A DNA stretch of 64,000 nucleotides from an uncultured Bacteroidaceae bacterium. GTDB lineage: Bacteria > Bacteroidota > Bacteroidia > Bacteroidales > Bacteroidaceae. The stretch covers positions 1 through 64,000 of the forward strand of contig CAJODY010000006.1 in assembly GCA_905233285.1 (NCBI GenBank). The letters are read 5' to 3'. The translations under genes and the position numbers were made by a program. This document shows, one piece after another, positions 42,036 through 61,171 of the stretch (positions are counted from its first letter, which is position 1; the number at the start of each line of letters is the position of its first letter). Below the pieces are notes generated by a model. That model had not been told where the DNA came from and did not search any database. It saw nothing but the letters and a program-made list of their open reading frames with translations.

Positions 42036-42054
42036 GGGTTTGGGAAATTTTGCC

Positions 42055-42062
42055 CAAAGGTA
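42055..42062 (-). promoter_or_regulatory. -7 promoter box of the DUF4861 gene
   Basis: The minus strand reads TACCTTTG, a perfect -7 box, 20 bases upstream of the ATG at 42035. This short distance supports that start choice. Confidence 0.6.
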
Positions 42063-42107
42063 TGCAAAAATGATGACATTCAAAATATTCTCAATGATTA
42101 TTATTTG

Positions 42108-42115
42108 TATCTTTG
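42108..42115 (+). promoter_or_regulatory. -7 promoter box of mtaB
   Basis: TATCTTTG matches TAnnTTTG and lies 24 bases upstream of the ATG at 42140. No clear -33 box is seen. Confidence 0.55.
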
Positions 42116-42139
42116 CAAAGAAATAATGTTCAATGATTA

Positions 42140-43710: not shown

Positions 43711-46665
43711 ATGAAAAAAGTATTATTTAAAGCAGTTTTCTTCGGGGTATTGCTATGTTATTCTTGCGAGAACACTTTCAAGGATATATATGGCGATGTA
43801 AATGAAGATACACCTCCATCATGGCTTGGTGGAAGTATTTACTCCGAGTTGCAGAGTGCCAATCATCTAGACGGCACATTCTCAACCTACTTACGCCTTA
43901 TTGATGATTTGGGCTACGACGAAATCCTTAACAAGACTGGTAGTAAAACTATTTTCCCATCAAACGATGAAGCCTTTGCAAGATTCTTTGCAAATAATAA
44001 CTGGGGAGTAACATCTTACGATGATTTGACATACGCACAAAAAACATGGCTTGTAAAGTCTTCTATGCTTGACAATGCCCTGCTTATTGGCATGCTTTCA
44101 AATGCAAGTGCAGGAAACATCATTGCAGAAGGAGTGGCGATGAAACACCCAACCAACATAAATGTTATCGACTCTATCATTTGGGTTAAACCCCAAGACA
44201 TGCCACAGAATAATGTGTATTGGGGATATTGGAAGAAAAACAACATAGACACTTATGCAGTAAGCGATAACACAACTCCAATGATGGTTCACTTCACCCG
44301 TGAACACATGGTAAGAAACAACATCACTACAACAGGAGAGAACTCTGACTTTGAGATTATTACAGGTGAGAAGTACGACGCAGAAGCCAAGAACGTATTT
44401 ATTTTTGATAACAAAGTAATCAAACCGGATATAACATGTCAGAACGGTTACATTCATCAGGTACAAAATGTACTCATAGAACCAGGTAATATGGCTCAGG
44501 TACTAAAGGAGCAAGAAAATACAAAATATTGGAGTCACATTCTGGATTATTACTCTACACCTTATTTTGATGCTGCAACAACTAAAAACTATAATGACTG
44601 GGTTGAACAGTATAGCGATTTGGCTGCTCAAAACGGTTATCATAAACACGACTCTATATTCCAGGTACGCTACCTCAGTTCGCGTTCTCAAGGTGCACCT
44701 CTGAATGTAGACCCTAATGGTGCAAGTAAGTCTACTACGGAAATTTTGCGCTTCGACCCGGGATGGAATGCATACTATCCGCCATCTGAATATAACACTG
44801 GCGGAGATCAAAATCAAATTTCAGACATAGCTGCAATGTTCGTTCCGACAGATGCCGCAGTTGAAAAATATTTCCTCCCTGGAGGTTCAGGAGAATATAT
44901 CATAAACGTATATGGTAAAAAACCTAATATTAAAGCTAATCTTTTTGAAAATCTTGATAGTCTTCAGAAAGATCGCCCTTCTATTCTGACTGCATTTGTG
45001 CGAAACCTTCAGCACGCTTCATTTACAAGTTCTGTTCCAAGCAAATTCACCACATTGATGAACGATGCTAGTGAAAACTTGGGAATGAACCTTGAAAAAC
45101 TTGAGACAAAACCTGGCGGTTATGACATCAAAATTGCCAACAATGGTGTAATATATAAACTGAACGCTATGATTGCACCTGATGAATACAGTGCAGTACT
45201 TGCACCATCTTCTACTTATCAGGATATGCAAGTTATGAACTGGGCTGTTCAGGATTGGCACTCTGGGGCAACTACCAGCTATTTGTCTTTAGACTTCAAA
45301 TACTTCTTGCTTTCCATGAAGTCGAACTATGCATTCTTCATCCCAGATGATGATGCTTTTGCATCAAACGACATATATTATTTGGATCCGACCACAATTG
45401 GACATACATACCCGGAAGTCATACATTTCTACTACGACAAGAGCAAGAAGAGTGAGCCAAAGATTCAAGCAGAATCATACAGATATGACTTAAGTACAAA
45501 TACCATCGGAACATTAGTCGGTCCAATGGAAGTCGGTTCTGTTACCAGTCCCAACAGACGTATCAAATCTGCACTTACTGATATTTTGAATTATCACACT
45601 ATAGTGCTCAACTATGGCGACACAATCGGTGTAACCACTATGAACCACTATTATAAGACAAAGCATGGAGGAGAGATATATGTCGATTACGGTACCAATC
45701 CACATAATGGTATGGAAATCAAGAGTGGTGCTGCTATTGACAATGGACTTCCGTCATCGAATCTATACCCAATCACGTCAGGTAAAGCTGCATACTTTAA
45801 CCAAGCCAACGGTACATCATACCGCATTGACCATGTAATTCAACCAACTATTAAGAGCGTTACGGAAATTCTGAGAACAACAACTCAATTCCAAAAGTTC
45901 TATAATACTTGCTTACTATTCTCCAACTCTGAGATACTGTCATGGATAGGCATCTCAGCAGAGAAAGCTGATGGAGAAGTTAAGAGCCCGCAAGAACGAT
46001 ACATCCTTTTTAATCAACAAGACGGAGGTTATCACTCACTTGATGCAGTTGATGGCAACATAACCCTATTCAATACGTATAACTACACGCTTTACGTACC
46101 AAACGACAACGCGATGGATGCAGCTTACACATTAGGATTGCCTGACGTAGAAGATATATACACAATATATGAGACTTTGTCTCCAACCTACGACGAATGC
46201 CCGGAACCACAGGCTACCGAATTACGCGAGAAATTGGACGTGTTGAAAAATTTTGTACGCTATCATTTCCAAAATATCGCCCTATATGCCGATGTTGATA
46301 ATTTGCCAAGTGCAGCATACCAAAGTATGTACACAAACAATTATGGATTGGCACAGGAGTATAATGTGTCAGGAGGTGGCAATCAGCTTTCATTGAAGGA
46401 CGCTTCCGGCGTAACTCATATCATCAATGCCAACAACACTTCTATGGTATCTAATAAGATGACACGCGACTATTGGCTGGACAGCGATCGCAAGAATGCA
46501 ACAGAAATCGCCACATCTTCATTCTGCGTAGTTCATGAAATAGCTGATGCTCTGAATTTCAACAGCAAAACTTCAAGTAATCCTACCGCACGTTACGACT
46601 ACGGCAAAAGCTGGTATGGAGGCAGTGCAAAAAAGCATATGACTACAAGGAAGACAAACAAATAA
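43711..46665 (+). CDS. Multi-FAS1 (fasciclin) surface lipoprotein
   Basis: This 984-residue lipoprotein has a signal ending LLCYSC (Cys19). I see up to four fasciclin-type modules. The first (about residues 45-265) has the H1-like TIFPSNDEAFARFF and the H2-like NGYIHQVQNVLIEP. The second (to about 490) has IAAMFVPTDAAVEKYF and NGVIYKLNAMIAP. The third (to about 715) has YAFFIPDDDAFAS and YRIDHVIQP. The fourth has YTLYVPNDNAMDAAY and VTHIINANNTSM. FAS1 domains bind partner proteins or glycans in adhesion molecules. The acidic residues after the Cys (CENTFKDIYGD) fit export to the cell surface. It is the first gene of the run and is 18 bases before a SusC gene. The ligand is unknown. Confidence 0.85.
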   Translation: MKKVLFKAVFFGVLLCYSCENTFKDIYGDVNEDTPPSWLGGSIYSELQSANHLDGTFSTYLRLIDDLGYDEILNKTGSKTIFPSNDEAFARFFANNNWGVTSYDDLTYAQKTWLVKSSMLDNALLIGMLSNASAGNIIAEGVAMKHPTNINVIDSIIWVKPQDMPQNNVYWGYWKKNNIDTYAVSDNTTPMMVHFTREHMVRNNITTTGENSDFEIITGEKYDAEAKNVFIFDNKVIKPDITCQNGYIHQVQNVLIEPGNMAQVLKEQENTKYWSHILDYYSTPYFDAATTKNYNDWVEQYSDLAAQNGYHKHDSIFQVRYLSSRSQGAPLNVDPNGASKSTTEILRFDPGWNAYYPPSEYNTGGDQNQISDIAAMFVPTDAAVEKYFLPGGSGEYIINVYGKKPNIKANLFENLDSLQKDRPSILTAFVRNLQHASFTSSVPSKFTTLMNDASENLGMNLEKLETKPGGYDIKIANNGVIYKLNAMIAPDEYSAVLAPSSTYQDMQVMNWAVQDWHSGATTSYLSLDFKYFLLSMKSNYAFFIPDDDAFASNDIYYLDPTTIGHTYPEVIHFYYDKSKKSEPKIQAESYRYDLSTNTIGTLVGPMEVGSVTSPNRRIKSALTDILNYHTIVLNYGDTIGVTTMNHYYKTKHGGEIYVDYGTNPHNGMEIKSGAAIDNGLPSSNLYPITSGKAAYFNQANGTSYRIDHVIQPTIKSVTEILRTTTQFQKFYNTCLLFSNSEILSWIGISAEKADGEVKSPQERYILFNQQDGGYHSLDAVDGNITLFNTYNYTLYVPNDNAMDAAYTLGLPDVEDIYTIYETLSPTYDECPEPQATELREKLDVLKNFVRYHFQNIALYADVDNLPSAAYQSMYTNNYGLAQEYNVSGGGNQLSLKDASGVTHIINANNTSMVSNKMTRDYWLDSDRKNATEIATSSFCVVHEIADALNFNSKTSSNPTARYDYGKSWYGGSAKKHMTTRKTNK

Positions 46666-46683
46666 CTTTAAAATACATTTACT

Positions 46684-49600
46684 ATGAACAATATATTAAA
46701 AATGAGCAACCATAGATTTGGCGTCATATTGCTGACCATTCTGCTGAGTATTATTTCTCATGCAGCAATGGCACAGGGAACACGTATCTCGGGTACTGTG
46801 TCCGACGAGATGGGTCCGGTCATGATGGCAAACGTTGTAGAACGCGATGGTACGCAACAACTACCGACTTCAATGGTAACTTTGCCTTGGCTATAAAGAG
46901 CCCAAAGAACAAACTTGTCATTTCATATGTAGGTAACAAAACTGTAACCCTGCCACTGAATGGTAAGCAACGTGTATTCAAGGTTTTCATGGAGTCAGAA
47001 ACACAACTTCAGGAAGTAGTAGTTAAAGCTGTGAAGAAGACTGACGTAGGTGGTTTGAATATCCCTGTAAAGGAGATGACAGTCGCTGCGCAGACTTTCA
47101 ATATGGAAGACGTTGAAGGTCTTGCATTTACTTCTGCTGACGAAGCCCTCCAAGGTGAAATCGCCGGACTTGACATTGTTGCAAACTCTGGTAACCTGGG
47201 TGCCGGCACGCAGATGCGTCTACGTGGTGTCACAACAATCAATGGTGATGCAAATCCACTTATAGTTGTAGATGACAAAATATTCGACAATCCAGATGAG
47301 ACATTTGACTTTGCTAACGCAAGCGAAGAACAATATGCTGCACTTCTCTCTGTCAATGTCGATGACATCGCAAAAATAGATGTACTTAAGGATGCCGCAG
47401 CTACCGCTGTTTGGGGAGCCTACGGCGCAAACGGTGTAATTCAGATTACAACGAAGCGTGGTATTCGCGGAAAGACAAAAGTGAATTTCTCGTATAAATT
47501 TACAGGTACATGGATGCCGAATGGATATAAGTTGCTCAATGGTGATAACTACACCATGATGCTGAAGGAAGAATTCTACAACCCTTCACAGAGTTCAACA
47601 GCAACTTCTACCATGCGAGAGCTCAATTACGATAAGTCATGGGCTGAATATGAAAATTGGAACAACAATACAGACTGGGTAAAGGAGGTTTCAGATTTTG
47701 GAAAGCTTCATAACCTAAACTTCAACATAACCGGTGGTGGAGAAAAGGCAACATTCCGTATTTCAGGTAGCTATGACCACCAGACAGGTTCTATTATCAA
47801 ACAGAAGCTGGATCGTCTGACCACCCTCCTCATTCTTGATTACGATGTGAGCGATCGTATCCGCTTTTCTACGAAATTCCCTCTCACATACACCAACAAC
47901 GAGAAAAATTATACCGACCTATTGGCTATTGCCCAGAGATTATCTCCTAACATGGCCGTTTACCGTCAGGATCAGTATGGAAACGATACCGACGAGTTTT
48001 ACATCATGAACCCAGAAGGCGATCCGACGCAGGGTAATTATTCATCGGTAAACCTACGTGCAATGCGCAACCTTGGCAATCCTGTGGCTATTGCTCATCA
48101 AGCATGGAAGAAGGAATCAACCTATCGTATCACTCCTGACTTCCTGCTGAAGTATGAATTGTTGGGCAAAGACCCAGATAAACACCGCCTGACACTGTCA
48201 GCAGATGTCGATTTTGATATATATGCCAACAGTTCGCCGTCATGGCACCCCGCATCACTGAACACTGGCGCTATCTCAACCGGATGGACTGCCACTGACT
48301 ACAATGCAAGCACAAGTTCGGAGAGCAACCGTTTCAAGATTGGTGCAGAAGGAAAGTTGACATTCACTCCTCATTTCAGCAACGAGGATTGGACAGCTAC
48401 TGCTCTCCTGCGCTATCAGATGCATACATCGAAGTATAACAGTCAGAGCAATACACTGTTCGGACTTCCTTCAGGTATCACATCACCTACTGCTGAAGCT
48501 GGTATGACAACAAGCGGAATGTCTAACTCGACAAGTCGTTCGGCTGATGAGAACATCCTGTTCAATGCACATGCTTCATACAAAAGTATATACAATCTTG
48601 GAGTTTCAGTACGTATGGACGGAAACTCAAAATTCGGTCCTTCACATAAATGGGCTACGTTCCCTGGTCTTTCAGCTCGTTACAATATAAGCGACGAGAA
48701 GTTTGTAAGATCTTGGCTGCCAGAAGTTATCTCATTATTCGGCATTCGTGCCAGCTGGGGTATTAACGGTCGTGCTCCAACAACAGATTATCTTTATTAT
48801 AACAAATACAATACTAGCGCCGGATACTATGGTAATGGTACAAGCGTTGTACAGTACGGAACTGTCGATGGCATGAAACTCGACGACCTGCGTTGGGAAA
48901 AGACCACTTCTATAAATTTAGGAGGTAATCTGAATTTCTTCGATGATAAACTGACTATCGATTTCGACTATTATCGCAAGAATACTTCCGACCTGCTTAT
49001 GACTGGCGTCGGAATCCCTACATCAACCGGTTACTCCTCACTTTCGTGGTATAACGTAGGCGAGATGACCAACAACGGTTGGGAACTGAATATATCTGGA
49101 CGCGATTTCATAAAAATAGGAAAAAAATTCTCAATCAGTGCGACATTCAACATTGCTCAGAACGTGAACAATATCAAGTCGATGGATGAACGAGTATTGA
49201 GCGCAATTAACACTGAATGGGACTATTCTTCAAGAGGTACATATCTTAACCGTATCCAGGAGAACAATCCGCTGGGAAGTATCTACGGATACCGCTATAA
49301 GGGTGTGTACCAATACACATATTCATATCTTGAGAACATGAAGAAGGAGAACAACTGGACGGCAGACGAGTATCGCAACTGGATAAACGGACAGTTGGCA
49401 GAAGGCAAGACTTTCCCTGTAGTGACAGATGCTAACGGACACGTGGTAATGAACAATCAGGGGTCACCACAGCGCATGGTTTACTACTACAACGACGGTA
49501 CTCCTACTTATGAGTTCAACGGTGGTGATGCCATATATGAAGACATAAACCACGACGGACAGATTGACAAATACGACATTGTTTATTTGGGTAATTCCAT

Positions 49601-50090
49601 GCCCAAATTCAATGGTGGTTTCAGCCTCACACTAAAGTACGGGCGTTGGAAACTCGTAGCTCGTTTCTCATATCGCTACGGCAACAAGATTGTGAATGCT
49701 GCACGTATGAATTTGGAAAATATGTACACGACAAACAACCAGGCTGCAACGGTGAATTACCGTTGGCGTAAGGATGGCGACGTGACACCTATCCCTCGTG
49801 CGCTGTACAATACTGGTTACAACTGGCAGGGTTCAAGCCGATATGTAGAGGACGGCTCGTTCCTGCGATTCCAAAACCTGCAAATTTCATATTCGTTCCC
49901 GCAGAAGCCACTGAAAAAGATTGGCCTGAGCAGTCTGGCTTTGTATTTCTCACTTAACAACATCTACTGTTGGACTAAGTACAGCGGTGTTGATCCAGAA
50001 GTTGCAATTGGTGGATGGGGTGTTGCTCAAGATAACTCGAAGACCCCACGTACGAAACAGTTTACAGCCTCTATTAATGTCGGATTCTAA
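46684..50090 (+). pseudogene. SusC/RagA TonB-linked outer-membrane transporter, frameshifted
   Basis: The first segment (46684-46896) encodes the signal peptide (HRFGVILLTILLSIISHAA) and the start of the regulatory-like sandwich (TRISGTVSDEMGPVMMANVV). It stops early. The remainder continues in another frame to 50090, reading TTTDFNGNFALAIKSPKNK just before the plug. The shift near 46860 is explained by one missing base; a T lost from gatgg-tacgc would restore DGYATTTDFNGNF. The plug has MRLRGVTTINGDANPLIVVD and GANGVIQITTKRG, then a full 22-strand-type barrel ending KQFTASINVGF. No other defect is visible over 3.2 kb, so a recent mutation or a sequencing error is likely. With its SusD (next gene) it would import a ligand across the outer membrane. 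Confidence 0.88.
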
Positions 50091-50099
50091 AAACAGTCT

Positions 50100-51899
50100 A
50101 TGAACATGAAAAAGTATATATATATTATTCTATCGAGTCTTCTTGCCGTATCATGTGTAGATACAGCATTACTGCCTGATGACAAGACAGTGGACGAAGA
50201 CTTCTGGAAAACAAAAAATGACGTAGCACTTATGGTTAATGGTGCATATGCTCAAATGACTAACTCGGACCTCATCACCCGACTCATAGTGTGGGGGGAC
50301 TTCCGCAGTGACGAATTGGTACAGTCAACAGGAATAACGGGTGGTAATACATATCAGCAATTGCTGCAGATATTCACAAGCAATATTGCGGTGACTAATA
50401 TGTACACTAATTGGCAATCACTCTATTCTGTTATAAACAATTGCAACATCGTTATTGCCAAGGCCGGTAGTGTGATGGAACAAGACCCTAACTATACTCA
50501 AGGTGACTACCTCAACGACATTGCCCAAATGAAGACACTGCGTTCACTCTGCTATTTTTACCTTGTACGCGCATTCCGCGACATTCCGTATATTACAGAG
50601 GCATACATGCAGAACAGTCAGGATATGAATATTCCACAGTCATCACCAGAAACTGTATTAAACGGTTGTATCGCTGACCTTCTGGAATCTGCCCCCAACA
50701 TCATTTCCCCTACTGCATATGACGGGTGGAGAAGAAAGGGATGGTTCAATAGCGACGCAGTCTATTCTCTGCTTGCCGACATTTACATCTGGAAAGCATC
50801 TGTTCATCACAATGACCCGAGTTACGATGCCGCAACCGATTACCAGCAGTGCATCAACTATTGTGACATTGTAATAGATTCAAAGAATAATGCTCACGTG
50901 TATGGAAAATCAGAGGCGCCAGACCCGACTAACAAGTATCCTGCTCTTGCCAAATATGAGGACGACTACAACGAAATCTTCATTAGCCAGAATGCAGAAG
51001 AAAGCATTTTTGAGATTCAGTTCAGTGGACAGTATGAGAACTATGATAAGAATAATACACCACTGGGTAACAACGGCGTTTGCCAGATGTACTACAAGTA
51101 TCAAAACAACGGTTCGGGATATGGATATCTCAGAGCCGCAGGTATGTTTGGCATATCAGGTACGAGCAATGTTGTATTCAACCAATCTTACGATGGCAGA
51201 AAGATTAAGTTCATCTTTGGTTGCAATGGTGATGCGGCTGAACAGTATGACATAAGAAAGATGTGTGTGGAAGCTACGGGATATACATATGGAGCACCCA
51301 CAGGATCAGGTCAGACGCGTCAGGGCGACCGCGATTACAACCGCTTCGCACAAAACTACATTGTTTATCGCATGACAGACATTATGCTGTTGAAGGCTGA
51401 GGCAATGGTACAATTGGCAACAGATGACACAGACCCGACACTCCAGACCGCATTCGACATTGTTAAAGCAGTCAACGACCGTGCACATATTGCCGGTACT
51501 GTTACAATGAGTGACGAACTGCGTTTTGCTACAGGAAGTTCCATTCAGGGAAATGCCTTCAACACAAAAGTGGGTATGGAAGAACTGGTTATGGAGGAAC
51601 GTCTGCGCGAACTCTGTTTCGAGGGTAAACGTTGGTACGATCTTCTGCGTTACAACTATCGCCACACCGAAGGAGTTAACTACAATATAATACTTGCCGA
51701 CCAACAGGCTTTTGCAGCGAACTACCGTCCGATGATTAATCTGGCAGCAAGAAAGAGTAGTGACCTGAGTGCCCTGTATGCTAAAATGCCAACAGAACCA
51801 TATCTTTATATGCCTATCAGAGAGGGCGAACTAAAGGTGAATCCGGCATTGAAACAGAATCCTGTTTACACCAGCAAGACCGACACAAAGAATTACTAA
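50100..51899 (+). CDS. SusD/RagB surface lipoprotein
   Basis: This 599-residue lipoprotein has a signal ending LLAVSC (Cys19). The SusD N-terminal part shows NLWNDIVWGD-like YTNWQSLYSVINNCNIVIAK and MKTLRSLCYFYLVRAFRDIP (a TPR-type helix). The C-terminal part has YIVYRMTDIMLLKAEAMVQL and MEERLRELCFEGKRWYDLLR, the hallmark near the end of SusD proteins. SusD forms the lid over the SusC barrel and helps bind ligand. It follows the SusC gene by 9 bases, as the partner of the frameshifted transporter. The ligand cannot be deduced. Confidence 0.95.
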   Translation: MNMKKYIYIILSSLLAVSCVDTALLPDDKTVDEDFWKTKNDVALMVNGAYAQMTNSDLITRLIVWGDFRSDELVQSTGITGGNTYQQLLQIFTSNIAVTNMYTNWQSLYSVINNCNIVIAKAGSVMEQDPNYTQGDYLNDIAQMKTLRSLCYFYLVRAFRDIPYITEAYMQNSQDMNIPQSSPETVLNGCIADLLESAPNIISPTAYDGWRRKGWFNSDAVYSLLADIYIWKASVHHNDPSYDAATDYQQCINYCDIVIDSKNNAHVYGKSEAPDPTNKYPALAKYEDDYNEIFISQNAEESIFEIQFSGQYENYDKNNTPLGNNGVCQMYYKYQNNGSGYGYLRAAGMFGISGTSNVVFNQSYDGRKIKFIFGCNGDAAEQYDIRKMCVEATGYTYGAPTGSGQTRQGDRDYNRFAQNYIVYRMTDIMLLKAEAMVQLATDDTDPTLQTAFDIVKAVNDRAHIAGTVTMSDELRFATGSSIQGNAFNTKVGMEELVMEERLRELCFEGKRWYDLLRYNYRHTEGVNYNIILADQQAFAANYRPMINLAARKSSDLSALYAKMPTEPYLYMPIREGELKVNPALKQNPVYTSKTDTKNY

Positions 51900-51920
51900 T
51901 TAAAAGGAGAAAGAAGAAAT

Positions 51921-54059
51921 ATGAAAGCTAATAGATTCTTGAAAGATATGAAAACTCTCTATACAATAGGTATTCTGAGCATTACAGCCTGCATGGTTTC
52001 ATGCTCAAACGAACCGGATGGAGAAGACCTATATACTGCAACTGGAAAAACCATTGCTGAATACATAGAGGAAGATCCAGACTTATCTTCGTTTGTATAT
52101 ATTCTGAACCGTGTCGGCCTGGACAAGACATTGTCATCGTACGGACAATACACTTGCTTCGCTCCGTCTAATGCTGGTATAGAAGCCTATATCGATAGTC
52201 TTTACGACGACGACAAGTCACCTATTCCTCACAACGGCATGATAGAGAGGTCACTCTATGGTTTGACCGACAGTTTATGTAATGACATTGCGAAGTTCCA
52301 CCTTTTGGGAAGTATACGTACTATTGCCGACATGAGTGGTAGCATCGGTACATCTATCAATACAATGCTTGGATATGCCTTCACGGCCTCTATTGATGAG
52401 CAAACGGGACAGACTACCCTCAACAATGTCGCACATATCATTAACGCAGATAACGAGGCAACTAACGGATATTTCCACAAACTAGACAAGGCTATATCCC
52501 GAGACACACGAATGTTACCGGATGTACTGCACAGCATTGATGGTTATACCATATTTTATACGGCTTTGATGAAAACCGGGCTTAACGAGGCTCTTAAAAT
52601 AAACAACAAGGGCAAAATCTATACTTTGTCAGACCAGACAGATACTAATGGTGCAGACCTTTATTCACCTTCTGAGTGCAGGGTCGGATTCACCATCTTT
52701 GCCGAATCTGACGAAGTCATGGCAAAGGCAGGCATCAACTCTTTTGACGATTTGGTAGCTTATGCAAACAGCAAATACGGCAATGCTGCTGCGTGGTATC
52801 ACTATCTGAATGAGAAAGGACTGACTGTGAACACTGGAACCACTGATGCAGACTTCAAGAAACCCGAGAATGCCTTGAATATGTTTGTGGCATACCACAT
52901 TCTAAAGACCGGTATGGCTATCGACAAGATTCTGTTCTCGAGAGAAGCATATACCTCAGGAGGCTACACTGCTTACAACTACTGGAACTATAACCCCGAG
53001 ACATGTTATGCTGAAGTGTATGACTATTTTGAGACTATGCTCCCAAACACTCTTATGAAAGTATGGGGTGGCAAATATGGTAGTACAGGTTCGCTTTATA
53101 TCAACCGATGGAAACAGTATAATACATTGACCGATGAAGTCGGAACACCTGGTTCCGCTGCAATGCACCCGATGCGCCAAACAGGTGTAAAGATTCTACG
53201 AGACTTGAACAAATCCGCACTCAACGGATATATACAGGCTATCGACAAGATGCTTGTATATGACAGCAATGTTCCCAATGGTGTTCTCCACGAACGTATG
53301 CGCTTTGAAACCACCACTTTTCTTCCCGAATTCGGAAACAACGGTCTGCGATTCATTTCTTCCAACGAGGCATTCATCCTAAATGGCTCGCAGGGGTCTG
53401 GAGCTCGTATTGCATTCCCTGTTGATTACTTCGACAATGTATATTGCTATAATGGCGAAGATACCAAAGTAAGATACAACGTAAATGGAGCATATAACGC
53501 ATGGCAGGCAAACTGCTTCCAAGGTTGGGGACAATATGACCTAGCTATCAAACTTCCACACGTTCCGACTGGAATCTATGAACTCCGACTGATGTACGTT
53601 CCTATGGCTCACGGTGGATTCATGCAGTTCTATCTCGGTACAAGCAAAAACGTACAGGAAATGGAAATTCTCGGTCTTCCACTTGACGTACGTGTACCTG
53701 CAAATGATGAACGCATCGGTCTGACACCGGCCGACCAAGAGGATGACCAAGGAGTCGCAACGGATAAGGCACTTCGTAACCGTGGCTATATGCGTAGCCC
53801 TATGACATACCGTCAACACCCTGAAAGCCGCGATGAGGGTACGACAGGAAACCAGAACATGCGTACAACTAATGATGGTTCAAGTTGGGCTCTGCGTAAA
53901 ATCCTTGTTACAAAGCAATTCAAACAGAGTGAAGACTATTGGTTCAGAATCAAAAACATGATTTCTGATGACTCCGAACTCAAATGGCAGTTCGACTATA
54001 TTGAATTCGTACCAGTTGACATTGTCAACAGTACAGAATATTCAGAAGACTGGATGTAA
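51921..54059 (+). CDS. FAS1 lipoprotein with C-terminal beta-sandwich
   Basis: This 712-residue lipoprotein has the lipid-attachment Cys28 in ACMVSC, followed by an acidic stretch (SNEPDGED) suited to surface export. Two FAS1-type modules follow. The first (about residues 45-200) has GQYTCFAPSNAGIEAYIDSL and NNVAHIINADNEATNG. The second (to about 460) has SECRVGFTIFAESDEVMAKA and a VPNGVLHERM closing region. The last 240 residues are a separate beta-rich domain (RIAFPVDYFDNVYCYNG, GIYELRLMYVPMAHGGFMQF), like a galactose-binding-type sandwich. It lies 21 bases after the SusD gene. It may be the equivalent of the extra surface glycan-binding proteins (SusE/F) of ordinary loci. Confidence 0.82.
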   Translation: MKANRFLKDMKTLYTIGILSITACMVSCSNEPDGEDLYTATGKTIAEYIEEDPDLSSFVYILNRVGLDKTLSSYGQYTCFAPSNAGIEAYIDSLYDDDKSPIPHNGMIERSLYGLTDSLCNDIAKFHLLGSIRTIADMSGSIGTSINTMLGYAFTASIDEQTGQTTLNNVAHIINADNEATNGYFHKLDKAISRDTRMLPDVLHSIDGYTIFYTALMKTGLNEALKINNKGKIYTLSDQTDTNGADLYSPSECRVGFTIFAESDEVMAKAGINSFDDLVAYANSKYGNAAAWYHYLNEKGLTVNTGTTDADFKKPENALNMFVAYHILKTGMAIDKILFSREAYTSGGYTAYNYWNYNPETCYAEVYDYFETMLPNTLMKVWGGKYGSTGSLYINRWKQYNTLTDEVGTPGSAAMHPMRQTGVKILRDLNKSALNGYIQAIDKMLVYDSNVPNGVLHERMRFETTTFLPEFGNNGLRFISSNEAFILNGSQGSGARIAFPVDYFDNVYCYNGEDTKVRYNVNGAYNAWQANCFQGWGQYDLAIKLPHVPTGIYELRLMYVPMAHGGFMQFYLGTSKNVQEMEILGLPLDVRVPANDERIGLTPADQEDDQGVATDKALRNRGYMRSPMTYRQHPESRDEGTTGNQNMRTTNDGSSWALRKILVTKQFKQSEDYWFRIKNMISDDSELKWQFDYIEFVPVDIVNSTEYSEDWM

Positions 54060-54084
54060 CCTAATCTAACACAAAAATAATATT

Positions 54085-55866
54085 ATGAAGATAAATAAAT
54101 ATATAGGTTTTACGATGTTGGTTGCATCTCTTGTCTCAACCACATCATGTTCCGACTGGAACGACTGGAACGAAGTCCAGGCAGACCCTAACCCCTCTGC
54201 AGACAAAACGCTATGGGATAATATATCCGAGATTCCAGAGCTGCAGAACTTCAAGACCATCATTGAAAGAGTCAATATGCAGGAGGCACTCGAATCAAGT
54301 AAGTTCCATACCATATGGGCACCTTCACTTACTGATAAACAGCGCGACTCCGTTCTTGCATTGGACGACGAAGTCATTGTTTCACAATTTGTAAACAACC
54401 ACATTGCTGAATACAACTATCAAGCGACAGGTGTAATGGAGAATCGCGTTCATACTCTTAACCAGAAAGCTTACAATTTCTCCGGCAGTAATTTTGATTA
54501 CACTTTCAATCACGTAAAGTTGTCAAAAGCAAACATTCCAAATAGCAATGGTACATTACACGTATTGGAAAGCAACTCACCATTTCTTCCTAATGCATAT
54601 CAGAATATTTGGATGACAGAAAACGTGGATAAACTGGCAGATTACTTCAAGCAATACGAAATAACGGTATTAGATGAAAGCCAGTCTGTGCCAGGTCCAA
54701 TTGTTAATGGTAAGCAGACATACATCGACTCTGTGAAGGTAACGTACAACACGATGACGAGATCAATCGGAGCTGCACTCGACAATGAAGACTCTATTTA
54801 CACCTTTGTTTTGCCTAACAACGATGCATACGATAAGATGTACAATGCTATCAAGTCTCTCTATAAATATAAGGAAAATACTTTGGGACAGAACGTGGCA
54901 GAAGCAGCATCTACTACATATGCAACAGTTACAGGTACATCAAATGTAGATTATCTGAACTTCCTTGCCGACTCACTCACACGTCGTCAGATTGTAAACA
55001 ACCTTGCATATAGCCACACAAACAAATACAACAAATTGTATTTTGAGGAAGGTAGCCATGAGTTGGATACCATCAATTCAACATACCGCATGAAATTCTC
55101 CGAGCCCGACAGAATTTTTGACCCCGAACACATTGTTGAGCGCAAACCTCTGTCAAACGGAGACGCTGTAGTTGTTGACTCCTTAGGATTCAAGACATGG
55201 GAGACATATAATCCGGAAAATAAAATTTCAGGTACAAATGCATGCCGTGTTCTAAACGGAAATCGCGAGACAAAAGTAATCAACGTACCTTACATCAATA
55301 CAGATTTAGTTACTCTAAAGCCTGGCGAAACCACTTTCCGCTATATTCAGGCCGTTCCGAAATCAAATATTGGAAAACCCGAAGTTGACTATTACCTTAC
55401 AAACGTATTGTCGGGAAGATATTGTATTTATATAGTAATTCCACCATCAAGCATAGATAGGGAAGACGAGTCAACCCCACACCCCAATTGGTTAACTTTT
55501 TCACTAAACTATTTCAATGGCACTAAACTGGTTGACTACACATTCACTAATGAACGCTACGACCCTAAAAATAATGTTATTACAACAATAAATCCAAAAA
55601 CAGGGGCAGAGGTAAAAACCACAATAAGCAACACTGATTTCTTTAACAATATCAACAAAGTCGATACTTTATTTTTGGGAGAAATCGAATTCCCATGCTG
55701 CTATGTTGGTCTTGACGATGTATATCCTAACATAAAAGTAACTATCTCTAAAACGTTTAGTGTATCAAGTACCAAAGGGCATCTTGAAGCATTCGACCGT
55801 ACCATACGTATCAATTCAATCATCATGCGACCTAAAGACTACGACAAGTATCTTAAAGAAGAGTAA
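54085..55866 (+). CDS. Fasciclin-like surface lipoprotein (divergent FAS1)
   Basis: This 593-residue lipoprotein has Cys22 in TTSC followed by the acidic SDWNDWNE. The first module (about residues 35-170) is FAS1-like but degenerate: FKTIIERVNMQEALESSKFH and TIWAPSLTDKQRDSVLAL stand for the usual start and H1 motif, and NGTLHVLESNSPF for H2. A second region (about 185-350) has SIYTFVLPNNDAYDKMYNAI, another H1-like motif. The C-terminal part (about 380-593) is beta-rich with no recognised family. It is 25 bases after the previous FAS1 gene and 15 bases before the second SusC. The function is probably ligand capture or assembly with the SusCD complexes. Confidence 0.75.
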   Translation: MKINKYIGFTMLVASLVSTTSCSDWNDWNEVQADPNPSADKTLWDNISEIPELQNFKTIIERVNMQEALESSKFHTIWAPSLTDKQRDSVLALDDEVIVSQFVNNHIAEYNYQATGVMENRVHTLNQKAYNFSGSNFDYTFNHVKLSKANIPNSNGTLHVLESNSPFLPNAYQNIWMTENVDKLADYFKQYEITVLDESQSVPGPIVNGKQTYIDSVKVTYNTMTRSIGAALDNEDSIYTFVLPNNDAYDKMYNAIKSLYKYKENTLGQNVAEAASTTYATVTGTSNVDYLNFLADSLTRRQIVNNLAYSHTNKYNKLYFEEGSHELDTINSTYRMKFSEPDRIFDPEHIVERKPLSNGDAVVVDSLGFKTWETYNPENKISGTNACRVLNGNRETKVINVPYINTDLVTLKPGETTFRYIQAVPKSNIGKPEVDYYLTNVLSGRYCIYIVIPPSSIDREDESTPHPNWLTFSLNYFNGTKLVDYTFTNERYDPKNNVITTINPKTGAEVKTTISNTDFFNNINKVDTLFLGEIEFPCCYVGLDDVYPNIKVTISKTFSVSSTKGHLEAFDRTIRINSIIMRPKDYDKYLKEE

Positions 55867-55881
55867 CCTTATAAAAGTAAT

Positions 55882-58800
55882 ATGAATATGAAAAATATAT
55901 TTTCAGCTATAAAACGTCAGAGTTTACGCCTTCCTCTCTTTGCACTTATGATGGCATCTGCAACTGCTGTCTTTGCGCAGGACGAAGCAGAGGAACAGGC
56001 TCCTGAGCGCAAACCTGCCAAAGCAATAAAAACTGCTAAGCAATATCCCACGGTTACTCTTCAAGGTAACGTAATCGATCTTGGCACAAACGCCCCACTT
56101 GCTGGTGTGCAGATTCAGGCATTAGGCAATAACAAATACACTGCCATGAGCGACGAAGAGGGTAATTTCACGATTAGAGTACCCAAATTCGTCACCTCAC
56201 TCTATGTATTCTCGCCGGAATATCTTAGTCAACAGGTTGCAATCGACCCACGTGACTCTGTATCAACTGTTAGAATTAAGATGCTGAGCGATAAATTTGC
56301 GACAATGTATGATAAAGATACACACTACACTGCTACTTCAAAAGCATCTATAGAATCACACTATTCAACCATTGATGGTGATATAACAAAAAAACTCCAT
56401 GGAGATGTACATGCTGTTACTCGTTCTGGAGTTTTGGAAGATGGTGCAGCCATGTTCATACGTGGTTTCAACTCAATCAATGCCAATGCTCAACCCCTCA
56501 TCATCGTTGATGGTGTAGAACTAGACATGATGCTTGATCGCACTGCACTGCATGAAGGACAGTTTATGAACCTTCTTGCCAACATCTCCCCTGCCGACAT
56601 CGAAAGCGTTGAAGTTATAAAGAACGCAACCGCTCTCTACGGAGCAAGAGGTGGTAATGGTGTTATCCTCATCACAACAAAGCGTGGTCATTCTATGGCT
56701 ACTCGTATCGATGCAAACATCTATGCAGGAATACAACGAATACCTACCCTGCCCACAATGATGAATGCACAGCAGTATCGCACATACGCCACAGAAATGA
56801 TTGGTACTATAATGAATCAGTACAACTACAACAAGACTATTGCATTCAAATTCCTCAACGACGACCCAAACGGATATTACTATAACACATACCATAACAA
56901 TACCGACTGGTCAGACGAAGCATACAAGAAGAATGCTGTAACACAGAATTATAGCATCAACGTGCAAGGAGGTGACGATGTTGGTATGTATAATCTGTCT
57001 ATGGGATATGCAAAAGTACAGCAGACAGCAAAGGAAAACGATTTCGAACGTATGAACATCCGTTTCAATACTGACATTGAAATCATTCCACAACTGAAGA
57101 CGAAGTTCGACCTTTCTATTTCACGTGTCAATAGCAATGTTTTTGACACCGCTATCCCGGAAGACCTTACCAAAGGAACCATCACCTCGCCTACATTCCT
57201 TTCACTCATCAAGTCTCCTATCGTAGCACCATACGAGTACAATGGAATCATCAAGGCATACTCCAACACTTTGTCCGACTACGATGACATCTTCGAACAA
57301 CTTAACTCTGTACAGAGCGGTTTAGGTTCGAAGCAGTCATTAGCTAACCCTTCATCAATCCTGAAATATGGTAAGGGCGACAACAAGAACAAAAACGAAA
57401 ATACCTACTTCAACATCCATTTTGCTCCTACACTCGCCATCAACAAACATCTGAAAGTGACTGAAGATTTGAGTTATTCACTTGTTCGCAACTCACAGCG
57501 CTATCTTCGTCCTTACACAGGTGTACCAAGTTTTACTGTTGATGGTCTCGGAACAGTGTTCTCAAAAGTTGCCTCTTTCCAAGCTAAAGAAAACAATCTG
57601 GTAAGCGACACACGTATCGATTGGAAAAACACATTCAACGGTAGCCATAATATCAGACTGTTTGGAGGATTCCGTTACAACAGATTCAAATACGACGCAA
57701 CAGAACTCTACACTCAGCACACCACAAAATCAGACGACAAGAATCCTTCACTCTCCTCAGGATATCAGGGTGTTGACGGTGCTGCCGACATTTGGAAGCA
57801 GATTCAGTGGTTTGCAAATGCAGATTATAACTATCAGAACCGTTACTTCTTAACTTTGTCTGCACTTGCAGAAGCAAACAGTCGCTTTGGTAAGAATGCT
57901 GGAACGAAGATGTTTGGTGTCGGATGGGCAATATTCCCAAGCGCTCAACTCGGATGGGTTCTCACCAATGAGAAATGGTTCAGAAAGAATAAAGGAATCA
58001 ACTATCTGCGCATAAATGCAGGCTTTGACATGAGTGGAAACGACGATATTTCCAATTATGCAGCACGCACATCTTACTCGTCTATACGTTACAACAACAA
58101 CGCCATTGGTTCACAGCTCACCAATATTGGTAACGACAAAATCAAGTGGGAAACAACTAAGAAATGGAACTTTGGACTTGAAGGAAACTTTATTGACAAC
58201 CGTGTTTCCGTGATCTTCAACTACTTCATCCACAACACCAACGACCTTCTCACCCGTAAAGCATTTGACAATCCAATCGGAGGTATCAACATGTACTGGA
58301 CAAATGGAGGTTCACTGCGTAACACCGGTTACGAATTCACATTCAGTGGCAAACCTATTGCTACAAAGAACTGGCGATTTGAACTTGGAGCAACAGTTGG
58401 TCACTATAAGAACGAAGTCACTTCACTACCCGATGGCGACTACACCTCTTCAATATACGGAGTGGACAACATTCTCACAGCAGTGGGTATGCCTGTAGGC
58501 GTATTCTACGGATATCAGACTGACGGAGTGTTTGCCTCAGCATCCGAGGCAGCCCAATACGGCAAAACACATGTAAATGTTGATGGACAGACCACAACGA
58601 ACCTTTACATGGTTAACTCAGCAGGTCAGAAAGTTGACTTTGCTGCAGGTGATGTTCATTTCATCGACCAGAATGGCGATGGAATTATATCCGAAGCCGA
58701 CAAAGTTGTTATTGGTGATCCTAATCCCGACTTTTACGGCAACGTATTTGCGAAACTCAACTTTAAGCGCATTACTCTCAGCATGAATTTCACCTATAGC

Positions 58801-59220
58801 ATCGGCAATGACATCTACAACTACCAGCGCTCTATACTCAACTCTGGTAGCACATTCTACAACCAGCAGATTGCCGAAGCAAACCATTGGCGCTATGAAG
58901 GACAGCAGACCAGCATTCCACGTCTTAACTATGGTGACCCACAAGGCAACAACCGTTTCAGCGACCGTTGGATTGAAGATGGCAGCTATTTGCGTCTGAA
59001 AGCAATCAATCTCTCATATCAGGTTCCTGTACCTACATCCTGGTCATGGCTGCAAGGTCTTAACATATGGGCTGAGGCACGCAACTTATTTACACTGACC
59101 AGGTATAAAGGCTCTGACCCTGAATTCAGCATTGGCAACGGAGTGCTCTATCAAGGCATCGATGCCGGCAACCTTCCACAAGGACGCTCATTCCTCGTAG
59201 GCGTTAAGATTAACCTCTAA
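55882..59220 (+). CDS. SusC/RagA TonB-linked outer-membrane transporter (second copy)
   Basis: The protein has 1112 residues and an intact frame. A signal peptide (LPLFALMMASATAVFAQ) is followed by an unusual charged, Pro/Ala/Lys-rich stretch (about residues 35-55). Then comes the regulatory-like sandwich (VTLQGNVIDLGTNAPLAGVQ). The plug has FIRGFNSINANAQPLIIVDG and YGARGGNGVILITTKRG. The barrel ends RSFLVGVKINL. It differs clearly from the first SusC of the locus (no shared long stretches seen by eye), so this is not a recent tandem duplication. It is followed by its own SusD gene. It probably forms a second TonB-driven importer in the outer membrane. Confidence 0.95.
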   Translation: MNMKNIFSAIKRQSLRLPLFALMMASATAVFAQDEAEEQAPERKPAKAIKTAKQYPTVTLQGNVIDLGTNAPLAGVQIQALGNNKYTAMSDEEGNFTIRVPKFVTSLYVFSPEYLSQQVAIDPRDSVSTVRIKMLSDKFATMYDKDTHYTATSKASIESHYSTIDGDITKKLHGDVHAVTRSGVLEDGAAMFIRGFNSINANAQPLIIVDGVELDMMLDRTALHEGQFMNLLANISPADIESVEVIKNATALYGARGGNGVILITTKRGHSMATRIDANIYAGIQRIPTLPTMMNAQQYRTYATEMIGTIMNQYNYNKTIAFKFLNDDPNGYYYNTYHNNTDWSDEAYKKNAVTQNYSINVQGGDDVGMYNLSMGYAKVQQTAKENDFERMNIRFNTDIEIIPQLKTKFDLSISRVNSNVFDTAIPEDLTKGTITSPTFLSLIKSPIVAPYEYNGIIKAYSNTLSDYDDIFEQLNSVQSGLGSKQSLANPSSILKYGKGDNKNKNENTYFNIHFAPTLAINKHLKVTEDLSYSLVRNSQRYLRPYTGVPSFTVDGLGTVFSKVASFQAKENNLVSDTRIDWKNTFNGSHNIRLFGGFRYNRFKYDATELYTQHTTKSDDKNPSLSSGYQGVDGAADIWKQIQWFANADYNYQNRYFLTLSALAEANSRFGKNAGTKMFGVGWAIFPSAQLGWVLTNEKWFRKNKGINYLRINAGFDMSGNDDISNYAARTSYSSIRYNNNAIGSQLTNIGNDKIKWETTKKWNFGLEGNFIDNRVSVIFNYFIHNTNDLLTRKAFDNPIGGINMYWTNGGSLRNTGYEFTFSGKPIATKNWRFELGATVGHYKNEVTSLPDGDYTSSIYGVDNILTAVGMPVGVFYGYQTDGVFASASEAAQYGKTHVNVDGQTTTNLYMVNSAGQKVDFAAGDVHFIDQNGDGIISEADKVVIGDPNPDFYGNVFAKLNFKRITLSMNFTYSIGNDIYNYQRSILNSGSTFYNQQIAEANHWRYEGQQTSIPRLNYGDPQGNNRFSDRWIEDGSYLRLKAINLSYQVPVPTSWSWLQGLNIWAEARNLFTLTRYKGSDPEFSIGNGVLYQGIDAGNLPQGRSFLVGVKINL

Positions 59221-59237
59221 TAATAACCTCAGAAAGT

Positions 59238-59277
59238 CTAGAGCGACTAGTTAGTCTAGTGAATCTAGAGAATCTAG
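59238..59277. repeat. Period-9 tandem repeat built on ctag
   Basis: ctag recurs at 59238, 59247, 59256, 59265 and 59274, an exact 9-base period, with the surrounding bases partly conserved (gaatctaga). It fills most of the 76-base gap between the second SusC and SusD genes. Confidence 0.75.
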
Positions 59278-59296
59278 AAAAATACAATAAACGAAA

Positions 59297-61171
59297 ATGA
59301 AAAAAGATATGATAAAAAGAGCGACAGTGATGCTATTTGGAGCAGCCCTTTCTGCCTCTTTCATTTTGACTTCCTGCGAAAAAATGTTGGATGTTGGCAG
59401 CGACCGTCAGGCTTTCGAACCCGATATGAACGCTAAGACCGACTCGGTATTCTACGCATTCGGTATTGCACAGGCAATGCAACAACTTGCCGACCAGTAC
59501 TTCTATCAGGGAGAAATGCGTGGTGAACTGGTTGCCACGACACAATATACTGATAGTATGCTTTCACAGTTGAAGAACTTCAGTGCAGGACTCAACAACA
59601 AATACGACTCTGCATACGTGTACTATCGTGTAATCAACAACTGCAATTACTACCTTGAGCATCGTAACAGAGATTTGCGCACCGGTTCTACCGATGTCAC
59701 AATAAATGAATATGCCGCTGTCACTGCTTATCGTGCTTGGGCATACCTCCAACTGGCACGTAACTATGGTAGAGTGCCATTCTTTACCGAACCATTGACA
59801 AGCGTCTCACAGATTGACAAAGGATTCCCTGAATACGATATCTATCAAATTGCCGATGCACTTTGTCCCGACCTTGCACAATTTTCAGGCATACCAGTGC
59901 CAAACTATGGTACAAGCATCAATATCGGTAATGTAAATGGCGGTGGCTCTAAAGCGATGAATACAACAAAGATATTTATCCCTGTTGATGTCATTCTCGG
60001 TGACCTCTATCTCGAGACAGGTAAATACGCAGAAGCTGCCAACAGCTACTTCACCTATCTGCAGACTAATAAGACTTTACTGCCTAATGTTCAGACCGTA
60101 CTGCAAATGCGCGATGATTCCACCCCCTTCCCAACGGACTATGATAGGGACGATAATAATAAAGCCAACACGTATCCCAACATCTACACATTGTCAAACT
60201 CTGCCACATGTCTTGACATCGTATCCTACATACCTATGGCAGCCAACGAGCGAATGGGTACCATTACAAACGTACCTTTCTCATTTGGTTACGACTTCTA
60301 TGCTCTGTCTTCAAGAGCACGGTGGAGAGAGGATATCCAGCTAACCCAGTCAGCCGTTTACAACCAACTGGTTGAAGGTCTCGATTACTATTACTACAAG
60401 GATGTCTCCGGTGGCCTGCCTAAGCAGTACATTACAGCAGGCAAATATGGCGATATGCGTTCCATTGCTAACATCTATTCGACTAGTGCCACTTCATCTA
60501 CGACCAGCAGCGACGACGAATCTAAGACGGAATGGATTGACAAATTCCGCAGCGCCAACATCATCATATATCGTGTCACTACAGTTTACCTACACCTCTG
60601 CGAAGCACTCAACCGCATGGGCTTGCCTGATGCCGCTTTTGCTTTCCTGAAGGAAGGTCTGACCGACAAACTCGTACAGCCAACTACTACATGGCTGTCG
60701 GATGATGCAAAGGCCTACTTCAACAACACATTCTTCAACGCTGCAAACATTGACACATACAAATCCAACACTTTCCCAATTCACCAGCACGGATGCGGTG
60801 CTACGCCCGACGGCAACTACACCGACTACTCCACTTCTGTTACATATAAATTTACATCTGAAATAGCCAGAAAGTTCAAAGAACTTGCAGCAGCAGATGC
60901 TACCCTCTATCCTGGTTTGGCATCACGTGTCAGCACCGGTACCACAACCAAGGCCGACACCATCATGGCAATGGAAGAACTGCTTTGCGACGAAGAAGCT
61001 ATGGAATTCTGCTTCGAAGGCACACGTTGGTACGACCTCATGCGCTTTGCACGCCATAAGAATCGTGCCGGACTTCCGGGTAATGCATGGCTTGCCGACA
61101 AGGTAAAGTCGAACGACCCTGTTGTTAATCTTCTCGACGAAGCAAACTGGTACCTTCCATTCAAGAAGTAG
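59297..61171 (+). CDS. SusD/RagB surface lipoprotein (second copy)
   Basis: This 624-residue lipoprotein has a signal ending FILTSC (Cys27). SusD features are the helical YYRVINNCNYYLEHRNRDL and YAAVTAYRAWAYLQLARNYG region, and the C-terminal MEELLCDEEAMEFCFEGTRW followed by YDLMRFARHKN. It is the partner of the SusC gene upstream. The gap to that gene (76 bases) is longer than the others in the locus and carries a tandem repeat, so expression may be uncoupled to some degree. It is followed by a weak hairpin and a new promoter. Confidence 0.94.
   Translation: MKKDMIKRATVMLFGAALSASFILTSCEKMLDVGSDRQAFEPDMNAKTDSVFYAFGIAQAMQQLADQYFYQGEMRGELVATTQYTDSMLSQLKNFSAGLNNKYDSAYVYYRVINNCNYYLEHRNRDLRTGSTDVTINEYAAVTAYRAWAYLQLARNYGRVPFFTEPLTSVSQIDKGFPEYDIYQIADALCPDLAQFSGIPVPNYGTSINIGNVNGGGSKAMNTTKIFIPVDVILGDLYLETGKYAEAANSYFTYLQTNKTLLPNVQTVLQMRDDSTPFPTDYDRDDNNKANTYPNIYTLSNSATCLDIVSYIPMAANERMGTITNVPFSFGYDFYALSSRARWREDIQLTQSAVYNQLVEGLDYYYYKDVSGGLPKQYITAGKYGDMRSIANIYSTSATSSTTSSDDESKTEWIDKFRSANIIIYRVTTVYLHLCEALNRMGLPDAAFAFLKEGLTDKLVQPTTTWLSDDAKAYFNNTFFNAANIDTYKSNTFPIHQHGCGATPDGNYTDYSTSVTYKFTSEIARKFKELAAADATLYPGLASRVSTGTTTKADTIMAMEELLCDEEAMEFCFEGTRWYDLMRFARHKNRAGLPGNAWLADKVKSNDPVVNLLDEANWYLPFKK

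What the first reader, a model, noticed from the sequence alone, without database searches (positions are those of the whole stretch)
43711..61171. Compact double SusCD locus built around three fasciclin-type lipoproteins and without any degradative enzyme
Seen: seven plus-strand genes in the order FAS1 lipoprotein, SusC, SusD, FAS1 lipoprotein, FAS1-like lipoprotein, SusC, SusD. Gaps are 9-25 bases, except 76 before the last. Known: SusCD pairs are TonB-driven importers, normally with glycosidases, lyases or peptidases and a regulator; FAS1 domains mediate adhesion or ligand binding. Inferred: with no enzyme and no regulator in the window, the locus may capture or import a ligand that needs no surface cleavage (peptide, cofactor, glycoprotein fragment), or build an adhesive surface complex. 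The two SusC proteins look only distantly related, so two different cargoes, or one cargo through two complexes, are possible.
Basis: partly seen in the sequence, partly recalled or inferred. Interest (0 to 1): 0.75.

Follow-up and report, generated by a model that had tools for sequence, protein, structure and literature searches.

The report
Conserved two-importer, three-fasciclin sugar-uptake locus
This is a real seven-gene locus for two outer-membrane importers and three fasciclin-domain surface proteins; the same gene order recurs in many gut and rumen Bacteroidota, relatives often sit beside pectin-cutting enzymes, and so it most likely captures and imports pieces of plant pectin.

Summary
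Confirmed: seven plus-strand genes, FAS1-A, SusC1, SusD1, FAS1-B, FAS1-C, SusC2, SusD2. SusC1 has a frame break that two close relatives lack. The order is not local: the same genome has a second copy (contig C24); 72 of the 80 best SusC1 relatives in named genomes show it (six others end at a contig end, two have a split gene); six of eight loci opened outside the family show it. "No degradative enzyme" holds only next to this copy. The C24 copy follows a GH43 arabinanase-like gene. Loci of the window's subtype carry an eighth gene, P8, a ~940-aa protein of no known family (from 61385), found in 21 of 24 subtype genomes versus 2 of 375 others; 7 of 18 such loci viewed have PL11 rhamnogalacturonan-I lyases nearby, none of the six in the window's genus. 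Models fit four tandem FAS1 domains in FAS1-A and FAS1 domains plus a beta-sandwich (CBM6-like among its matches) in FAS1-B. Best reading: capture and import of pectin (RG-I) fragments, a FAS1-based variant of the double-SusCD pectin loci of Bacteroides. Cargo is inferred from neighbours; neither binding nor transport was tested.

The parts
43711..46665 (+). FAS1-A, 984-aa lipoprotein; model fits four tandem FAS1 domains
   Evidence: ORF; Pfam Fasciclin 57.2 bits; AlphaFold pLDDT 76.6, pTM 0.75; Foldseek best hits periostin/TGFBIp, E 4e-19 to 2e-18 over about 930 columns, low TM-scores 0.24-0.40
46684..50090 (+). SusC1 (TonB-dependent transporter), reading frame broken near the 5' end; main frame open from 46887
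   Evidence: SusC/RagA 638.6 bits; open orthologues
50100..51899 (+). SusD1, lipoprotein lid
   Evidence: SusD_RagB 85.6 bits
51921..54059 (+). FAS1-B, 712-aa lipoprotein: FAS1 domains (two by inspection) plus C-terminal beta-sandwich
   Evidence: Pfam 62.3 bits; AlphaFold pLDDT 73.5, pTM 0.74; Foldseek
54085..55866 (+). FAS1-C, 593-aa lipoprotein, related to FAS1-B by profile (its last ~130 profile positions not aligned)
   Evidence: Pfam 35.4 bits; hhalign probability 98.2
55882..59220 (+). SusC2 (TonB-dependent transporter)
   Evidence: 26% identical to SusC1; 48% identical to the C24 copy
59297..61171 (+). SusD2, lipoprotein lid
   Evidence: SusD_RagB 35.4 bits
61385..64000 (+). P8, secreted-looking protein (signal peptide by eye) of no known family, 940 aa, runs to C6:64207 beyond the window; eighth gene of the subtype
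   Evidence: family alignment; 21 of 24 subtype genomes versus 2 of 375 others
40836..42179 (-). DUF4861 protein, upstream neighbour on the other strand, beyond the gene at 42140-43468; a similar 399-aa protein lies near the locus in a same-genus genome (by eye); role unknown
   Evidence: Pfam DUF4861 281.3 bits; no PDB relative

Best explanation
The seven genes encode the outer-membrane part of a polysaccharide utilisation system for pectin fragments. FAS1-A, -B and -C are surface lipoproteins that hold glycan chains at the cell surface (FAS1 modules as spacer or docking part, the C-terminal sandwich of B, and perhaps of C, as sugar-binding part). Two non-identical SusCD pairs import the fragments through TonB. 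In the window's subtype the cargo is most likely rhamnogalacturonan-I backbone oligosaccharides, made by PL11 lyases that are encoded near the locus in some relatives and elsewhere in this genome; P8 is a secreted helper. The paralogous C24 copy is most likely for arabinan. Shown: gene content, conserved order, subtype-specific neighbours, domain predictions. Inferred: surface location, sugar binding, cargo, complex formation.
For: Seven-gene order in 72 of 80 SusC1-selected loci, a second copy in the same genome, and six of eight loci opened outside the family. Pairwise distances of six of the seven families (SusD2 not included) correlate at r 0.86-0.94 over 86 loci. A GH43 gene precedes the C24 copy; the enzyme in that place in the close relative L042 matches endo-1,5-alpha-L-arabinanase 4kca at E 1e-135; arabinanase-profile hits at 15 of 28 rows of that FAS1-A clade and none of the other 84 rows. 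Window subtype: PL11 in the fetched flanks of 7 of 18 loci; within 20 kb of FAS1-B at 7 of 25 subtype genes versus 2 of 54 other FAS1 clusters in the same 20 genomes, Fisher p 0.0036. GH28 and GDSL esterases near some. Outside the family, each beside one locus: a rhamnogalacturonate-lyase match, GH2, FGGY kinase, SASA/GDSL esterase. Own genome: five PL11 loci, three GH28. CBM6 and CBM32 structures among the Foldseek matches of FAS1-B. B. thetaiotaomicron arabinan and RG-I PULs also use two SusCD pairs (PMC8002723, passages).
Against: No PL11 near the locus in the window's own genus (0 of 6 viewed). Neighbours in the large Prevotella clade vary (GH67, GH98, GH31, esterases, tRNA synthetase and other housekeeping genes), and GH115 lies beside one outgroup locus, so the core may not be pectin-specific. 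The PL11 test ignores shared ancestry, used capped hit lists and hand-collapsed clusters; at 12 kb from FAS1-B it shows nothing (1 of 25 versus 1 of 54). Flank lengths seen differ between loci. Models are moderate and TM-scores low; the FAS1-B sandwich also matches non-CBM folds (xanthan lyase, Cry5B, gingipain adhesin). No regulator found near this copy. The SusC1 frame break could mean decay.
Confidence: 0.6

Rival explanations
1. A general plant-glycan capture-and-import module (xylan, arabinan, pectin alike) whose cargo is set by whatever enzymes are near; the window copy has no defined pectin specificity.
For: GH67, GH98, GH43 with the xylosidase-type C-terminal domain, GH31, GH115 and esterases beside other copies; several copies per genome, e.g. 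FAS1 clusters on five contigs of Hallella seregens.
Against: Clades track enzyme type in part: arabinanase-profile hits only in one clade, P8 almost only with the window subtype.
Confidence: 0.25
2. An adhesive surface complex: tandem FAS1 proteins attach the cell to plant material or a host, and the SusCD pairs serve as membrane anchors.
For: Nearest solved structures are periostin and TGFBIp; FAS1 is often taken as adhesive (PMC6032426, passages).
Against: Two SusCD pairs in each of the 72 full loci; enzymes and hybrid two-component regulators beside relatives; the same review calls the adhesion reading context-dependent.
Confidence: 0.08
3. Import of a peptide, cofactor or glycoprotein fragment that needs no surface cleavage.
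For: No enzyme next to the window copy; RagA is among the PDB relatives of SusC1 (E 2.7e-67).
Against: Other SusC homologs match better (8aa4 E 4.7e-123, 5t3r 4.1e-96; their cargo is recalled, not looked up); glycan enzymes beside relatives; S8 and M60 peptidases each in 1 of 26 neighbours.
Confidence: 0.07

Closest known systems
B. thetaiotaomicron pectin PULs with two SusCD pairs: arabinan BT0348-BT0369 and RG-I BT4145-BT4183 (PMC8002723, passages; PMC3243724, passages)
   Same: Two SusCD pairs, separate surface glycan-binding protein, GH43 endo-arabinanase or RG-I lyase, pectin parts as cargo.
   Different: The passages seen name one SGBP per locus and no FAS1 protein (FAS1 was not searched for there); enzymes and regulator are in the locus. 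Homology of those SusCD to these was not tested.
Levan and dextran utilisomes (PMC7618045, passages)
   Same: Surface lipoproteins associated with SusCD for capture and import.
   Different: One kind of SusCD, one SGBP and one surface enzyme; 'FAS1' and 'fasciclin' do not occur in that text.
Tandem FAS1 proteins periostin and TGFBIp
   Same: Nearest solved structures by sequence profile and by fold.
   Different: Animal matrix proteins; 11-24% identity in the structural alignments with low TM-scores over whole chains; these are bacterial lipoproteins in an import operon.
RagAB importer
   Same: SusC1 matches RagA by profile (E 2.7e-67).
   Different: Weaker match than to 8aa4 or 5t3r; peptide cargo (recalled).

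Membership tests
Polysaccharide utilisation locus (PUL) | Adjacent SusC and SusD genes | tested here: met
Polysaccharide utilisation locus (PUL) | Carbohydrate-active enzymes in the locus | tested here: inconclusive
   Not met next to the window copy; met in the C24 paralogue and a part of the relatives
Polysaccharide utilisation locus (PUL) | Substrate-responsive regulator nearby | tested here: inconclusive
   None found in the window; hybrid two-component domains in 5 to 6 of 25 neighbours of other copies and profile hits in flanks L129, L131
Polysaccharide utilisation locus (PUL) | Induction by and growth on a defined glycan | not testable with these tools
   needs culture
B. thetaiotaomicron-type double-SusCD pectin PUL | Two SusCD pairs plus surface lipoprotein(s) | tested here: met
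   two pairs and three lipoproteins; sugar binding itself not tested
B. thetaiotaomicron-type double-SusCD pectin PUL | Sequence homology of the SusCD pairs to BT0361-64 or BT4164-69 | not tested
   those sequences were not at hand
FAS1 (fasciclin) domain proteins | Pfam PF02469 above the curated cut-off | tested here: met
   57.2, 62.3 and 35.4 bits, cut-off 22
RagAB-like peptide importers | SusC closer to RagA than to other SusC; peptide cargo | tested here: inconclusive
   8aa4 and 5t3r rank above RagA, which speaks against; what those carry is recalled, and cargo is not testable here
Surface glycan-binding proteins (SGBP) | Surface lipoprotein that binds the glycan | not testable with these tools
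   lipobox-like N-termini and a beta-sandwich in FAS1-B fit; binding untested

The most novel reading that the evidence does not exclude
The seven proteins form one hetero-utilisome: two different SusCD importers held together by tandem-FAS1 lipoproteins, so that one long pectic chain is gripped by FAS1 and sandwich arms and fed to two pores of different specificity; a widespread import machine of Bacteroidia that uses a periostin-like scaffold and has no described function.
Probability: 0.35. Interest if true: 0.78.

Novelty: new variant of a known kind. Interest (0 to 1): 0.55.

Why it matters
Fasciclin proteins of bacteria are often read as adhesins. Here they belong to a fixed seven-gene import cassette found in many Prevotellaceae of rumen and gut and in other families of the same class, with subtypes that partly track arabinan and rhamnogalacturonan-I enzymes. 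That gives a testable role for bacterial FAS1 domains, a marker for assigning cargo to many unannotated loci, and a case for asking why pectin systems use two SusCD pairs.

Tried and rejected
Peptide/cofactor import and pure adhesion were considered and rated low (see rivals). By-eye guesses for neighbours were not all confirmed: the 420-aa neighbour in L165, guessed as a pectate lyase, had no Pfam hit at 1e-5. Of the 20 regions, L025 (rearranged: two B, A, C1) and the lone FAS1-B genes L032, L034 and L040 do not follow the order. DUF4861 gave no paper and no PDB relative. P8 gave no Pfam match except a dockerin in one member, no NCBIfam match and only weak PDB matches, best E 0.076. Literature: seven searches with a fasciclin or FAS1 term listed no paper whose title or abstract start describes FAS1 proteins and SusCD as one system; listings only, apart from passages of PMC6032426 and PMC10199937. 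The latter mentions, apart from each other, a two-SusCD murein locus and a highly transcribed FAS1 gene in a symbiont. Searches asked about pectin and SusC without a FAS1 term. Only CC-licensed PMC papers are searched. FAS1-C and P8 were not modelled (two structure jobs only).

Full report
Observation. Seven + strand genes lie at 43711-61171 in the order FAS1-A, SusC1, SusD1, FAS1-B, FAS1-C, SusC2, SusD2, gaps 18, 9, 21, 25, 15 and 76. Families are confirmed by Pfam and NCBIfam. SusC1 has a frame break near its 5' end; two same-genus orthologues are open. The window is contig C6 of a 110-contig draft genome of 2.55 Mb, 89.9% complete; C6 ends at 64927. An eighth gene, P8, follows at 61385-64207. 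Next to the locus no enzyme was found; PL11, arabinanase, GH67 and hybrid two-component profiles hit no window ORF of 120 aa or more; a GH97 gene lies about 19 kb upstream. Not all window ORFs were scanned against Pfam.

A second copy in the same genome. Contig C24 carries the same seven genes in the same order on the other strand (SusC2 48% identical). Before them lies a GH43 protein with a laminin-G-like end; in the close relative L042 the enzyme in that place matches endo-1,5-alpha-L-arabinanase 4kca at E 1e-135. Genes that look like rplQ and rpoA precede it (by eye).

Conservation. Of 151 same-family genomes 103 have a FAS1 match. Twenty regions around FAS1-B-like hits, picked by hand and partly because two FAS1 hits lay close together, were fetched: 16 hold the order (two with a doubled FAS1-B), L025 is rearranged, L032, L034 and L040 hold a lone FAS1-B. 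A scan of named genomes with a SusC1 profile, not selected for FAS1, kept its 80 best of 570 relatives, mostly draft genomes of Prevotellaceae/Bacteroidaceae with Prevotella communis, Xylanibacter rodentium and Hallella seregens: 72 of 80 show A-C1-D1-B-C-C2-D2 (SusD2 cut by the 10-kb flank), six end early at contig ends, two have a split gene. Some of these are the same loci as. What the weaker 490 relatives look like is unknown. Distances of six families (SusD2 not included) correlate at r 0.86-0.94 over 86 distinct loci (C1-C2 r 0.93, reached by 0 of 999 permutations); this shows joint inheritance, not interaction. In a phylum sample of 296 genomes only the own genome gave full-length FAS1-B matches among those listed; others match over the FAS1 part. 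Eight of these places outside the family were opened: six have the seven-gene order with shorter FAS1 proteins, two a six-gene order with two FAS1 proteins.

Subtypes and neighbours. A tree of FAS1-A (112 rows, FastTree, midpoint root, so approximate) has a window clade of 17 rows (support 100), an arabinanase clade of 28 rows and a large clade of 59 rows. Arabinanase-profile hits: 15 of 28 rows of the second clade (L029 and L044 are one locus, the L041 hit is weak), none of the other 84; flanks seen differ in length. Window subtype, FAS1-B at least 40% identical: 24 of 399 family genomes. P8, with a profile built from subtype loci, is found in 23 of 399, 21 of them subtype genomes: 21 of 24 versus 2 of 375, Fisher p 1e-29 (both calls report 399 genomes with the same handles, taken as one sample). 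Flanks of 17 subtype loci were fetched and the window added: P8 near 17 of 18 (two on the other strand), PL11 near 7 of 18, none of the 6 in the window's genus. Within 20 kb of FAS1-B, PL11 occurs at 7 of 25 subtype genes versus 2 of 54 other FAS1 clusters in the same 20 genomes (p 0.0036); at 12 kb 1 of 25 versus 1 of 54, no difference; the lists were capped, clusters collapsed by hand, genomes related. GH28, GDSL esterases, GH97 and a pectinesterase domain also appear. Other copies have GH67, GH98, GH43, GH31, esterases and hybrid two-component regulators, but also housekeeping genes, and downstream neighbours share no family. Outgroup neighbours: a rhamnogalacturonate-lyase match, GH115, GH2, FGGY kinase, SASA/GDSL esterase, AraR-like regulator, one each; 83 further neighbours gave few shared families, GH2 and GH28 among them, besides unrelated ones. 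The own genome has five PL11 loci and three GH28 genes.

Proteins. Profiles of FAS1-A, -B and -C find periostin and TGFBIp as nearest solved structures. The FAS1-A model (pLDDT 76.6, pTM 0.75) aligns to these four-domain proteins over about 930 columns, with low TM-scores (0.24-0.40) that suggest a different arrangement of the domains. The FAS1-B model (pLDDT 73.5, pTM 0.74) matches tandem FAS1 (TM about 0.2) and all-beta folds: MiXBM, CBM6, CBM32 (E 1e-4 to 4e-3), but also xanthan lyase, Cry5B and a gingipain adhesin domain; that these fall on its C-terminal sandwich is inferred from the strand pattern. FAS1-C resembles FAS1-B in profile comparison (probability 98.2, 15% identity, its C-terminal ~130 positions not aligned). 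SusC1 and SusC2 are 26% identical; SusC1 is nearest to 8aa4.

Mechanism. Most likely a pectin import system: FAS1 lipoproteins capture chains, two SusCD pairs import fragments, lyases cut; in this genome the lyases are encoded elsewhere. Cargo and complex formation are inferred. The double-SusCD pectin loci of B. thetaiotaomicron (passages) are the closest kind; FAS1 lipoproteins and the fixed seven-gene order are the difference. Seven literature searches with a FAS1 term listed no description of it.

Noticed in passing
window 46684-46896: SusC1 frame break near the 5' end; intact in two same-genus genomes (L186, L187). Recent lesion or assembly error not decided.
   Followed up: partly
L019 (G000:C24): Second copy of the seven-gene locus after a GH43 arabinanase-like gene, beside rpoA/rplQ-like genes (by eye); in several other genomes the arabinanase-type locus also follows a run of ORFs of ribosomal-operon sizes (by eye).
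   Followed up: partly
window 61385-64000 and alignment A10: P8, a ~940-aa secreted-looking family without Pfam or NCBIfam match apart from a dockerin in one member (L130), nearly confined to genomes with this subtype.
   Followed up: partly
window 22725-24761: GH97 glycosidase about 19 kb upstream of the locus, apparently unrelated.
   Followed up: no
L129, L130 (G492): PL11 lyases and a P8 protein carry type I dockerin domains, unusual for Bacteroidota as far as I recall.
   Followed up: no
L145 (G115:C3): Two subtype FAS1-B genes about 12 kb apart, one outside a full seven-gene set.
   Followed up: no
L025 (G087:C65): Rearranged relative: two FAS1-B-like genes, then FAS1-A and SusC1.
   Followed up: no
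L170, L171 (G417, G152): Six-gene relatives with two FAS1 proteins, possibly an older form.
   Followed up: no
G694 (Hallella seregens): FAS1 clusters on five contigs of one genome; two viewed, both seven-gene loci (L172, L173).
   Followed up: partly
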